Below are positions 18,465 through 32,501 of a stretch of DNA of 64,000 nucleotides, piece by piece. The stretch comes from Mycolicibacterium gadium (GTDB lineage: Bacteria > Actinomycetota > Actinomycetes > Mycobacteriales > Mycobacteriaceae). The notes below the pieces were generated by a model, which saw nothing but the letters and a program-made list of their open reading frames with translations, did not search any database and was not told the origin of the DNA. The stretch lies in NCBI RefSeq assembly GCF_010728925.1, contig NZ_AP022608.1, positions 3,100,001-3,164,000 of the forward strand, written 5' to 3'. The translations under genes were made by a program, and so were the position numbers. Within the stretch, counting starts at the first letter, position 1; every line of letters begins with the position of its first letter.

Positions 18465-18480
18465 TGTCGGCACGCTGACA
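18465..18480. promoter_or_regulatory. island palindromic operator, site 1
   Basis: TGTCG-GCACGC-TGACA matches nine of ten arm bases. It ends 42 bases before the peroxiredoxin-like gene, and a possible -10 box TAGTCT lies at 18495-18500. Confidence 0.65.
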
Positions 18481-18522
18481 CCTTGGCTTCGGCCTAGTCT
18501 CCCCTCGTGATTGGCTGATGCG

Positions 18523-19062
18523 ATGCCAAAGATTGAAGCCGGTGATGTTGTCACCGCGCGTGAGCTCGCCGACATCCACGACAAGCTGGTACGCGTTCCC
18601 GACCAGGATCGTCTCGTACATTTGCAGTTCCGCCGTTTCGCCGGCTGCCCGATTTGTAACCTGCACTTGCGGTCGATCAGCGGGCGACACGACGAGATTA
18701 TTGCCGCGGGAGTCCGCGAGGTTGTGGTGTTTCATTCGAGCGCCGAGGCGATGCGTGAGTTTCAGTCGGAGCTGCCGTTTACGACGATCGCCGACCCCGG
18801 TAAGCATCTCTACCGCGAGTTCGGTGTTGAGTCTTCGCCGATGGCCTTGCTGAGCCCGCGCGCCATGTTGTCGGCCGCGCGCGGCATGAAAGGGCACCCG
18901 ATGCGCGGCGCGGCCGGGCGCGGCGAGGACCACCTCGGTTTGCCCGCAGACTTCCTCATCGGTCCCGATGGTCGCGTTTTGGCAACCAAGTACGGCCGTC
19001 ACGCCGACGATCAGTGGTCGGTAGACGAGCTGTTGGAGCACGTCAGCACGGCCACCCGATAG
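18523..19062 (+). CDS. peroxiredoxin-like (AhpC/TSA family 2) protein
   Basis: The 179-residue protein has a thioredoxin-fold peroxiredoxin-like domain. FRRFAGCPICNLH (about residues 34-46) holds a CxxC in place of the usual peroxidatic Cys motif, and a late GPDGRVLATKYG segment is typical of the fold. Such proteins reduce peroxides or act as thiol oxidoreductases. The start at 18523 (MPKIEAGDVV) is preferred; a TTG at 18511 in frame is possible. Operator site 1 lies just upstream, so it is a probable member of the Crp/Fnr regulon. It converges with the small secreted-protein gene at 19079. Confidence 0.72.
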   Translation: MPKIEAGDVVTARELADIHDKLVRVPDQDRLVHLQFRRFAGCPICNLHLRSISGRHDEIIAAGVREVVVFHSSAEAMREFQSELPFTTIADPGKHLYREFGVESSPMALLSPRAMLSAARGMKGHPMRGAAGRGEDHLGLPADFLIGPDGRVLATKYGRHADDQWSVDELLEHVSTATR

Positions 19063-19078
19063 GTCGAGCTGCGTGATA

Positions 19079-19348
19079 TCAGCAGCTGACCCGGAGGCAG
19101 ACCGCGGGAGACTCGCCCGTGGCGGCGGACGAGTGGTTCGGTCCAACCGAGCTGACCGTGCATTCGTCTAGTGGAGTGTTGCCGGCCTGTTTCAGGACGA
19201 CGGTGTAGCCGCTAGCCAGCAGTGAATTCACTGTTTCTTGCGCCGTGCCGACGCCGGACGGCGCCGTGATCGCTGGAGACGCTGATCCCACGGCCGCAGC
19301 CGCCGCCAGACCGCTGGTCGCAATCATTGCGAATGCCAATCTTCTCAT
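19079..19348 (-). CDS. small secreted protein, paralogue A
   Basis: The 89-residue precursor has a signal peptide (MRRLAFAMIATSGLAAAAAV, cleavage probably near residue 28). A short domain follows with QETVNSLLASGYTVVLKQAG, then a Cys pair (DECTVSSV and the C-terminal LRVSC), likely a disulfide. This family of tiny exported proteins is common in mycobacteria and has no known function. A GAGAGG ribosome-binding site precedes the ATG. It is a paralogue of the next gene upstream on the same strand. Confidence 0.75.
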   Translation of the reverse strand: MRRLAFAMIATSGLAAAAAVGSASPAITAPSGVGTAQETVNSLLASGYTVVLKQAGNTPLDECTVSSVGPNHSSAATGESPAVCLRVSC

Positions 19349-19464
19349 CGCCGTGCCTCTCGTTCGACGGCAGGGGTCGCGGGTTATTCCCGCGGTTGGA
19401 GCCGAATGTCACTGTGCGCCAGTTCATTCAGTGTCCGATCGCGACAGAGTCGCCGGGCAAGATG

Positions 19465-30903: not shown

Positions 30904-30914
30904 CACCCTCGCCG

Positions 30915-31799
30915 TCAACGAGTCATTGTCGAATCGTCGGCGTCGCGACGAGTCCGATTGCGGCGGGTGAAGCGGCGCCATCCCACCGCCGCCACGGCCA
31001 GCACCGCGAGCGCGGCGAGAAGCGGCCACACCCCCAGCGTGTCGACTTGGCGGGCCAGCCAACCCTGCACCGAGGCGGCCGCTTCGATGATCGGATCGTC
31101 GGGTCCGGCGTCGGTAAAGAACAACCGGATCTCGTAGTAGCCGTAGTACGTCACGTACAGCCCGGTCAACAGCACGATGACACCCGCGATGCGGCCGACG
31201 TGCGGCAGGATCCGACGGATGGCGCCCGCGGCAGAAGAACCGGCCAGCGCCACCGCCAGCGCGGCCACTCCGACCGTGATCGCCATCCCGGCGGCGTAGG
31301 CGATGAAGGCCAGGACGCCGGTGAGAATGGATCCCTGCTTGAATGTCGTGCTGATGACCGCGAGAAACGGTGCGACCGTACACGATAGCGATGCCACCGC
31401 ATAGCCCACGCCATAGCCATACATGGAGCGCAATCGAGCTGTCGGCGCCGAGCCGGACAGCTTCGGCACCATGACGGCGAGCTCCTTGCCCGCCAACAGC
31501 CAGACCGCCAGCGCGACGAGTAGGACACCGATGACCACGGTGGCGAACGGCAGATACTTCTGCACCGATGCGATCAACGGCGAGGCCACCAGACCGAAAA
31601 GGCCGAACACCGTGACGAATCCGGCGGACATGGCGATGGTCGCGGCACCGGCGCGGGCTAGTGCTGCTGGCCGAGACGGGGCCTGGCTGCTCCCGGCGAT
31701 CACCAGACCGAGATAGCCTGGCAGGAAGGCGAACCCACACGGATTGAGCGCGGCCACCACCCCGGCACCGAGCGCGAAACCGAGTGCCGCGGTGTCCAT
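30915..31799 (-). CDS. cytochrome c biogenesis/thiol-transfer membrane protein CcdA
   Basis: The 294-residue protein has six core transmembrane helices and the two membrane Cys of the family: NPCGFAFLPGYLG in helix 1 and SLSCTVAPFLAV in helix 4, plus extra C-terminal membrane segments and a basic tail. CcdA passes electrons from cytosolic thioredoxin to extracytoplasmic thioredoxin-like proteins. Its ATG overlaps the stop of the thioredoxin lipoprotein gene (ATGA), so the exported partner is encoded just upstream in the same operon. Confidence 0.88.
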   Translation of the reverse strand: MDTAALGFALGAGVVAALNPCGFAFLPGYLGLVIAGSSQAPSRPAALARAGAATIAMSAGFVTVFGLFGLVASPLIASVQKYLPFATVVIGVLLVALAVWLLAGKELAVMVPKLSGSAPTARLRSMYGYGVGYAVASLSCTVAPFLAVISTTFKQGSILTGVLAFIAYAAGMAITVGVAALAVALAGSSAAGAIRRILPHVGRIAGVIVLLTGLYVTYYGYYEIRLFFTDAGPDDPIIEAAASVQGWLARQVDTLGVWPLLAALAVLAVAAVGWRRFTRRNRTRRDADDSTMTR

Positions 31800-32350
31800 C
31801 ACTGGTTGGTGAGCGCCGTAATCCGCTCGGTCAGCTCGGGTTCTGGAAGCGTTCCCCTGACGACGTCGATGTTGCCGTCGGCGCGGACGAACGCAAGCGC
31901 CGGCTGCTGTGTGATGCCGAACTTGGCCCACACCGCCCCGTCCGTGTCGGCCAAGTGACTGAACCCCTTCACCGGGTACTGGTCGACGAACTGCTGCATC
32001 GCTGGCAGTTGGTCCAACGCGGCCACGCCGACGAACGTTACGTCGGGGTGCGTATCGGCGAGCTTGCCCACCATCGGCGCCTCCCGCTGACACGTCGGGC
32101 ACCACGGTGCCCAGAACCAGAACACCGCGGGCTTGCCCAGCACGCTTTCGCCCTTGAACTCCTGGCCCTCCAGCGTGGTGGCGGTGAACTGGAGCTGGGC
32201 CGGCACGTCGGTGCTGGTTTGGGTGTGGTCGCCCGCGGCGACCGAGGTGGTTGGCGGGGCGGGCGATGCTTCGGATCCGGTATCCGAACCACATGCGGAG
32301 ACCAGGATGGTCGTCGCGGCAAGCGTGGCGAACAGGCTGCGTGTCAGCAT
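31799..32350 (-). CDS. thioredoxin-like lipoprotein (TlpA/DsbF type)
   Basis: The 183-residue precursor has a lipoprotein signal with lipobox LVSAC (Cys near residue 20), a Ser/Thr/Pro-rich spacer, and a thioredoxin-like domain with the active site WAPWCPTCQ and a cis-Pro segment (TQQPALAF). It resembles mycobacterial DsbF/MPT53 proteins, which are oxidoreductases on the outer face of the membrane. The start at 32350 is supported by AAAGGA and the signal peptide. It is divergent from the second radical SAM gene, across operator site 10. Confidence 0.85.
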   Translation of the reverse strand: MLTRSLFATLAATTILVSACGSDTGSEASPAPPTTSVAAGDHTQTSTDVPAQLQFTATTLEGQEFKGESVLGKPAVFWFWAPWCPTCQREAPMVGKLADTHPDVTFVGVAALDQLPAMQQFVDQYPVKGFSHLADTDGAVWAKFGITQQPALAFVRADGNIDVVRGTLPEPELTERITALTNQ

Positions 32351-32485
32351 GATTCCTTTCAACTGAGTGGCCATCGCCCGCACGATACGGCCCGATGGAG
32401 GACAAGTCGCCGCCGTTAGTCGGCCAGCTGACAGTCTCGGGTGGCGACAGAGTCAGCCCAATAGACGGCGTGGCCGGCCCAGTCC

Positions 32486-32501
32486 TGTCAGCGTGCTGAC
32501 A
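32486..32501. promoter_or_regulatory. island palindromic operator, site 10
   Basis: TGTCA-GCGTGC-TGACA has perfect arms and is the exact reverse complement of the consensus. It lies between the divergent lipoprotein and radical SAM genes and ends 75 bases before the latter. A weaker match (AGTCG-GCCAGC-TGACA) lies at 32418-32433. Confidence 0.7.

What the first reader, a model, noticed from the sequence alone, without database searches (positions are those of the whole stretch)
18465..32501. Island-wide regulon: ten copies of TGTCA-N6-TGACA upstream of almost every transcription unit
Sites at 18465, 19887, 19982, 21582, 21613, 24838, 25001, 25438, 26914 and 32486 share arms TGTCA and TGACA with at most one mismatch, and the centre tends to GCACGC. 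I found none in the core DNA on either side. In three cases (21613, 25438, 32486) the site ends 74-75 bases before a start codon. The only Crp/Fnr gene of the island lies among them, with two sites at its own promoter. This form of site matches the TGTCR-N6-YGACA pattern known for CooA, a Crp/Fnr member, although the regulator here is not CooA-like. So a mobile element seems to carry a complete single-regulator circuit of redox, radical SAM and transport genes.
Basis: partly seen in the sequence, partly recalled or inferred. Interest (0 to 1): 0.85.

Follow-up and report, generated by a model that had tools for sequence, protein, structure and literature searches.

The report
Cmr redox regulon in a Mycobacterium
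A stretch of a mycobacterial chromosome carries the regulator Cmr together with a set of redox and transport genes, most of them preceded by the DNA site that Cmr is already known to bind in the tuberculosis bacterium, so the switch is known and what is added here is its likely core set of targets.

Summary
TGTCA-N6-TGACA occurs 11 times (at most one mismatch) in the window, all in 18465-32501, against 1.24 expected; five of the six exact matches in the 5.96 Mb genome lie there. The regulator at 20829-21554 is Cmr, 67% identical to M. tuberculosis Rv1675c. The motif is in print: M. tuberculosis Cmr binds TGTCAGCGTGCTGACA at its own promoter (PMC5499769), letter for letter the site at 32486. 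Neighbours are DsbF, the Rv1678-Rv1681 families, and further redox, transport and radical SAM units. In 118 genomes of the genus, exact sites average 5.0 with Cmr and 1.5 without; three target genes co-occur with Cmr (p 3e-8 to 6e-11). Gene order is shuffled, yet several operon leaders keep a site at a similar distance, in two genomes also when unlinked from cmr; six operon-internal families have none (0 of 32 rows). Against this, some Cmr-bearing lineages have only degenerate sites or none, and a looser pattern is in excess outside the island too. CooA and the mobile element are not supported. I found no description of this target set.

The parts
20829..21554 (-). Cmr, Crp/Fnr-family regulator (241 aa), relative of Rv1675c
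   Evidence: PDB 5w5a/5w5b E=3.5e-98; 67% identity, recognition helix and Cys36/Cys131 positions kept
18465..18480 (.). Cmr site, ends 42 bases before the redoxin 18523
   Evidence: at homologous leaders 42-46 bases in 4 of 5, 83 in L049 (starts estimated by alignment)
19887..19902 (.). weaker Cmr-like site, 107 bases upstream of secreted protein 19779(-)
   Evidence: leave-one-out 13.4 bits
19982..19997 (.). Cmr site (exact arms), ends 63 bases before DUF427
   Evidence: 63-78 bases in the six relatives with a site of 14 bits or more at this leader
21582..21597 (.). Cmr site 27 bases before the cmr start codon
21613..21628 (.). Cmr site (exact arms), ends 74 bases before membrane protein 21703
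   Evidence: 70-75 bases in 3 of 4 relatives
24838..24853 (.). Cmr site (exact arms); 24849-24864 overlaps it; target not clear (mycoredoxin start is 244 bases away)
25001..25016 (.). weaker Cmr-like site, ends 81 bases before mycoredoxin
   Evidence: leave-one-out 12.7 bits; no such site at the mycoredoxin of 5 relatives
25438..25453 (.). Cmr site, ends 75 bases before MFS transporter
   Evidence: kept in L049, the one relative scored, at 65 bases
26914..26929 (.). Cmr site (exact arms), ends 99 bases before the Rv1678-1681 operon
   Evidence: 99 bases in L049, about 100 in L151 where the operon is on another contig than cmr; absent in 3 other relatives
32418..32433 (.). added Cmr-like site (two arm mismatches), 67 bases before DsbF-CcdA
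   Evidence: 15.3 bits; DsbF of L049 and L022 has one at 70 and 65 bases
32486..32501 (.). Cmr site (exact arms), identical to the 16-mer bound by M. tuberculosis Cmr; ends 75 bases before the Tes-like radical SAM gene
   Evidence: PMC5499769
18523..19062 (+). AhpC/TSA redoxin; SelL-related below that model's cut-off; probable Rv1676 relative (not compared with Rv1676 itself)
19465..19779 (-). small protein with a signal-like start (by eye); a similar one at 19079-19348
20061..20812 (+). DUF427 protein (20061-20408) and membrane protein called MerT-like by eye (20405-20812; no Pfam or NCBIfam match)
21703..22592 (+). membrane protein without family (21703-22305) and NrtS-family protein (22314-22592, start codon not settled)
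   Evidence: (NF038050 40.2 bits, cut-off 25)
25098..25394 (+). mycoredoxin-like glutaredoxin
   Evidence: TIGR02200 82.7 bits, cut-off 89.5
25529..26899 (+). MFS transporter
27029..30903 (+). operon of Rv1678 membrane protein, Rv1679 FadE16, Rv1680 SBP-like, Rv1681 radical SAM
   Evidence: all four above the curated cut-offs
30915..32350 (-). DsbF (31799-32350) and CcdA/DsbD-type membrane protein (30915-31799)
   Evidence: DsbF 3ios E=1.1e-66; Pfam
32577..34945 (+). Tes/TrsS-like radical SAM protein and DVU_1556-like methyltransferase, all below the curated cut-offs

Best explanation
The repeated palindrome is the operator of Cmr, encoded at 20829-21554. Cmr dimers bind upstream of about eight operons in the island (redoxin, DUF427/MerT-like, cmr itself, membrane protein/NrtS, MFS, Rv1678-1681, DsbF/CcdA, Tes-like radical SAM/methyltransferase; mycoredoxin less surely) and set them in response to oxidation or nitrosation of two cysteines. 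Shown: the sites, their clustering, their association with Cmr across genomes, the kept cysteines and recognition helix. Inferred: binding in this species, activation of the targets, autoregulation at cmr, and the signal, all carried over from M. tuberculosis Cmr. Since nitrosation releases that protein from DNA, activated targets would fall and repressed ones rise under nitrosative stress; the sign at each operon is not known.
For: Regulator identity. Known operator identical to site 32486; a four-base mutant is not bound; activation of divergent rv1676 in vitro; nitrosation lowers binding: PMC5499769. Concentration in the genome. Exact sites: mean 5.0 in 11 Cmr-bearing genomes, 1.49 in 107 others, reversed pattern 0.82 and 0.90, Mann-Whitney p 2e-6. 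Co-occurrence with Cmr in 118 genomes: Tes-like 9 of 10, MerT-like 9 of 11, Rv1681 family 8 of 11 (Fisher 6e-11, 3e-10, 3e-8). Rows with 14 bits or more upstream: redoxin 5 of 5, DsbF 4 of 6, membrane protein 3 of 4, cmr 10 of 16; operon-internal Rv1679, Rv1680, Rv1681, CcdA, methyltransferase, NrtS 0 of 32; reversed sequence 0 in every group. Unlinked cases: in G026 the DUF427/MerT-like unit is at 885 kb and cmr at 4386 kb of one contig, and the unit has an exact site; in G037 the Rv1678-1681 operon is on another contig than cmr and has a 23.9-bit site, while the same operon in Cmr-less G029 and G074 has none. Order-level cmr loci: 15 hits of 12 bits or more in 51 kb, 0 reversed; 5 of 14 have one within 150 bases upstream of cmr.
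Against: Not every lineage fits. G057, G091 and G015 bear Cmr but have no site at cmr and only degenerate ones (7-13 bits) at DUF427 and Tes-like, and no site before their Rv1678-1681 operon, although DsbF of G057 has a 21.8-bit site. G083 has degenerate sites at both units. DUF427 is 6 of 22 rows and Tes-like 3 of 18; with repeated loci merged by hand, 6 of 13 and 3 of 10 genomes. Rv1678 is 1 of 4, mycoredoxin 0 of 5. Of 14 order-level cmr loci 4 have no hit of 12 bits, and in 5 others the hits are 0.8 kb or more away or not upstream. Cmr-less G023 still has a 22.6-bit site. A looser pattern is in excess outside the island, 73 sites there against 18 backwards in the whole genome. A -10 box at fixed distance was not significant (5 of 33 against 2.3 by shuffling). 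Related genomes are not independent. No binding or expression data for this species.
Confidence: 0.9

Rival explanations
1. Another regulator of the island (the TetR at 22740-23381, or an unseen one) uses the palindrome, and Cmr merely lies among the sites.
For: TetR-family operators are often palindromes (recalled); the sixth exact match in the genome lies between a TetR-like and a P450-like gene (named by eye from the translations).
Against: A relative of this TetR was found in only 1 of 16 cmr loci of about 20 kb or less (L049), whereas sites are at many of them; the published Cmr operator is the same 16-mer; there is no site between the TetR gene and its divergent neighbour.
Confidence: 0.05
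2. The sites are mostly a repeat family or composition effect of the segment without regulatory role.
For: Clustering in one segment; excess of the looser palindrome elsewhere in the genome.
Against: Arms are kept while flanks and centres differ; sites sit before operon leaders and not before the six internal families; reversed sequence scores none; no larger repeat holds the sites.
Confidence: 0.02
3. The operator is shared with the other Crp-type protein of the genome (3897235-3897873, 26% identical to Cmr), so that the island is under general Crp control.
For: Crp-family sites look alike: TGTGA-N6-TCACA for E. coli CRP (quoted in PMC5499769).
Against: The fourth base of the arm differs, and so does the recognition helix (VQRPSLNKILKEL against ASRETVNKALADF); exact sites go with Cmr in the genus.
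Confidence: 0.03

Closest known systems
Cmr (Rv1675c) of M. tuberculosis and its operator at cmr-rv1676 (Smith et al. 2017, PMC5499769, sections and passages read; Ranganathan et al. on BCG known only as cited there)
   Same: Regulator 67% identical, identical 16-mer, DsbF and Rv1678-Rv1681 families beside it, both sensor cysteines kept, sites at cmr itself.
   Different: Here ten or more sites cover many operons in 14 kb. The paper stresses repression of dosR; the two DosR-like genes of this genome have no site of 13 bits or more in 6 kb each (best 12.9), but the published dosR sites also score low with this matrix (-11.9 to 6.5), so this is no test.
CooA, CO sensor (recalled)
   Same: Half-site TGTCA is alike.
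   Different: The regulator is of the Cmr branch; no CO-oxidation family among the island proteins searched.
Tetraether lipid synthase Tes and radical SAM (seleno)protein TrsS families
   Same: Gene 32577-34160 matches both (324.8 and 336.1 bits) and has the HMPTM zinc ribbon.
   Different: Below both curated cut-offs (450 and 490 bits), so perhaps a separate group.

Membership tests
Cmr (Rv1675c) regulators | Crp/Fnr protein closest to Rv1675c | tested here: met
   67% to M. tuberculosis Cmr; next solved relatives at E about 5e-12
Cmr (Rv1675c) regulators | Two sensor cysteines (Cys36, Cys131) | tested here: met
   both present here, plus one more
Cmr (Rv1675c) regulators | TGTCA-N6-TGACA sites at its own promoter | tested here: met
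   21582 and 21613
Cmr (Rv1675c) regulators | Binding lost on nitrosation; no cAMP response | not testable with these tools
   needs purified protein
Cmr (Rv1675c) regulators | Repression of dosR | tested here: inconclusive
   no strong site near two DosR-like genes, but the published dosR sites also score low with this matrix
CooA | CO-oxidation genes beside the regulator (recalled) | tested here: not met
   none among the island proteins searched
CooA | Heme-based CO sensing | not testable with these tools
   needs purified protein; Smith et al. saw no heme in M. tuberculosis Cmr
Mobile genetic element | Recombinase with defined ends, or an empty site in relatives | tested here: inconclusive
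   recombinase-like ORFs beside it; no convincing ends and no empty site
Tetraether lipid synthase Tes | Score above the curated NCBIfam cut-off | tested here: not met
   324.8 bits against 450

The most novel reading that the evidence does not exclude
Cmr's original and widespread job in Mycobacteriales is local control of a thiol/nitrosative redox module (redoxin, DsbF/CcdA, DUF427/MerT-like, NrtS, Rv1678-1681, Tes-like radical SAM/methyltransferase) that moves and is reshuffled as a set of operator-bearing operons; the control of dosR described in the tuberculosis bacterium would be a later addition, and the two radical SAM operons would make a product needed under that stress.
Probability: 0.35. 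Interest if true: 0.7.

Novelty: new member of a known kind. Interest (0 to 1): 0.5.

Why it matters
The Cmr paper I could read deals mostly with its link to DosR. The operators compared here point to a core target set, with sites also in Longimycelium and in a Saccharothrix assembly, that includes radical SAM genes whose product I do not know. That makes Cmr's core regulon directly testable in a non-pathogenic relative and gives a functional frame for the Rv1678-Rv1681 genes.

Tried and rejected
CooA-type regulon: rejected, the regulator is Cmr. Mobile element: of 61 genomes (own included) 9 have the left-flank Rieske protein and 14 the right-flank pyruvate-kinase-like one; only G017 has both on one contig, in another order; imperfect repeat pairs only; left open. 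Fixed -10 box: not significant. dosR control in this genome: two DosR-like genes found, no strong site, and the matrix could not have seen the published dosR sites. Off-island sites: nine looked at; eight lie within some ORF of 150 codons or more, which says little in DNA of this G+C, one of them (200228) may also lie before an acyl-CoA-dehydrogenase-like gene. Literature; only PMC5499769 was read in part, PMC5855569 in passages, the rest seen as listings. Two earlier Cmr papers are not held, so part of the target set may be in them. No Rfam match at 15000-40000 at the gathering threshold.
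Full report
Observation. The palindrome TGTCA-N6-TGACA with at most one mismatch occurs 11 times in the window, all in 18465-32501; 1.24 are expected and 0 of 100 shuffles reach 11. In the whole genome (5,964,999 bases, one contig) there are 72 such sites against 49 for the backward pattern; of six exact matches five lie in these 14 kb. The sixth lies between genes that look like a TetR and a P450 (by eye). 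A looser pattern (TGTCAKCNNGMTGACA, up to two mismatches) gives 84 against 18 backwards; 11 of the 84 are in the island, so 73 lie elsewhere. I cannot say whether these are weak Cmr sites, other operators or codon usage; it speaks against a clean confinement of weak sites, not of strong ones.

Regulator. The Crp/Fnr protein at 20829-21554 matches the solved M. tuberculosis Cmr (5w5a, 5w5b) at E=3.5e-98, the next solved relatives at about 5e-12. Identity is 67% over 237 positions; the genome's Crp-type protein at 3897235 is 25-26% identical. The recognition helix (QRPSLNKILKE) is nearly unchanged down to 52% overall identity. Of the 11 full-length mycobacterial relatives (L039-L049), 10 keep cysteines at both sensor positions; L041 lacks Cys36. 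Outside the genus L021 keeps both, L018 and L019 lack Cys131, and L020 lacks both. So the published two-cysteine switch need not be general.

What is known. Smith et al. 2017 (PMC5499769; I saw the abstract, passages found by term, parts 1 and 2 of 3 of the results, and the concluding remarks) show by gel shift that M. tuberculosis Cmr binds TGTCAGCGTGCTGACA between cmr and rv1676, that a four-base mutant is not bound, that it activates rv1676 and acts both ways on cmr in vitro, does not respond to cAMP, and loses DNA binding on nitrosation. That 16-mer is the window's site 32486. They cite a ChIP-seq study of the BCG protein for the consensus; that paper is not held. Motif and regulator are therefore known, and part of the targets may be in the papers that I could not read.

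Gene content. The Rv1678, Rv1679 (FadE16), Rv1680 and Rv1681 families are met above curated cut-offs at 27029-30903; DsbF is at 31799-32350 (3ios) with a CcdA-type partner; a redoxin at 18523; DUF427 at 20061; an NrtS-family protein at 22314; a mycoredoxin-like protein at 25098; a Tes/TrsS-like radical SAM protein at 32577 with a methyltransferase. Bases between site and start codon: redoxin 42, DUF427 63, cmr 27, 21703 74, mycoredoxin 81, MFS 75, Rv1678 99, DsbF 67 (added site 32418), Tes-like 75. TetR-CMD-redoxin at 22740-24692 has no site.

Comparison within the genus. Cmr is in 11 of 118 sampled genomes at E 1e-40 or better. Exact sites average 5.0 in these and 1.49 in the other 107, reversed pattern 0.82 and 0.90, p 2e-6; related genomes are not independent. 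The Tes-like gene is in 10, 9 of them with Cmr; the MerT-like gene in 11, 9 with Cmr; the Rv1681 family in 11, 8 with Cmr.

Arrangement. In 16 cmr loci several of the same units recur in different order and orientation; L020 and L039-L041 hold few or none of them. With a matrix from the ten window sites, 300 bases upstream of each homologue were scored, start codons being estimated by alignment. Rows with 14 bits or more: cmr 10 of 16, redoxin 5 of 5, DUF427 6 of 22, membrane protein 3 of 4, DsbF 4 of 6, Tes-like 3 of 18, Rv1678 1 of 4, MFS 1 of 1, mycoredoxin 0 of 5, redoxin B 0 of 3, CMD 0 of 2, MerT-like 1 of 19. Operon-internal Rv1679, Rv1680, Rv1681, CcdA, methyltransferase and NrtS: 0 of 32. 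Reversed sequence: 0 in each group. Some rows repeat a locus fetched twice; merged by hand, DUF427 is 6 of 13 and Tes-like 3 of 10 genomes. In G057, G091, G083, G074 and G015 the DUF427 and Tes-like units have only degenerate sites (7-13 bits), mostly about 70 bases upstream, where the others have good ones.

Trans cases. In G026 (one contig) the DUF427/MerT-like unit is at 885 kb and cmr at 4386 kb, and the unit has an exact site. In G037 the Rv1678-1681 operon is on another contig than cmr and has a 23.9-bit site about 100 bases upstream, as here and in L049 (99). The same operon in Cmr-less G029 and G074 has none, but neither has it in the Cmr-bearing G057, G091 and G015. Cmr-less G023 has a 22.6-bit site before a redoxin that matches in two pieces, which looks like a decaying locus. 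Among 298 genomes of the order 14 have Cmr. The 14 loci other than the window's own (about 51 kb) have 15 hits of 12 bits or more and none reversed; in 5 of 14 a hit lies within 150 bases upstream of cmr, in 5 the hits are farther or not upstream, and in 4 there is none.

DosR. Two DosR-like genes (3c3w, E about 1e-113) have best scores of 12.9 and 6.8 bits in 6 kb each; seven 6-kb pieces of the window flank reach 7.2-14.6. The four published dosR-region sites score -11.9 to 6.5 with this matrix, so it could not have seen such sites.

Mobility. Large recombinase-like ORFs stand at 9270-14724 (integrase domains matched only in the first; the others judged by eye). No convincing terminal repeats and no empty site. 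The patchy spread and shuffled order fit horizontal movement, but a mobile element is not shown.

Verdict. A Cmr regulon, known in kind, with strong evidence for the link of sites and regulator, and with a new and testable part: a compact likely core target set with two radical SAM operons. Binding, direction of control and signal in this species are inferred.

Noticed in passing
window 9270-15143: Three large overlapping recombinase-like ORFs and a small fourth; only the first matches an integrase model. Resembles recombinase-in-trio elements (recalled).
   Followed up: partly
window 32577-34945: Radical SAM gene near the Tes and TrsS families but below both cut-offs, with a DVU_1556-like methyltransferase; in 10 of 118 genomes of the genus, 9 of them with Cmr.
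   Followed up: partly
G000:C1, whole genome: The looser palindrome TGTCAKCNNGMTGACA (up to two mismatches) is in excess outside the island, 73 against 18 backwards; not explained.
   Followed up: no
L051, G000:C1:3671716: Sixth exact palindrome between a TetR-like and a P450-like gene, perhaps another regulator's operator.
   Followed up: partly
L152 (G023): Cmr-less genome with Rv1678-1681, DsbF, a redoxin matching in two pieces and a partial membrane protein next to a strong site: looks like a decaying relic.
   Followed up: partly
L018 5859-6506: Second Cmr-like regulator (43%) in Longimycelium near the first.
   Followed up: no
L041 (G083): Second Cmr copy without Cys36 in a genome with two Cmr genes.
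   Followed up: no
G000:C1:200228: Off-island site of 19.1 bits possibly upstream of an acyl-CoA-dehydrogenase-like gene.
   Followed up: partly
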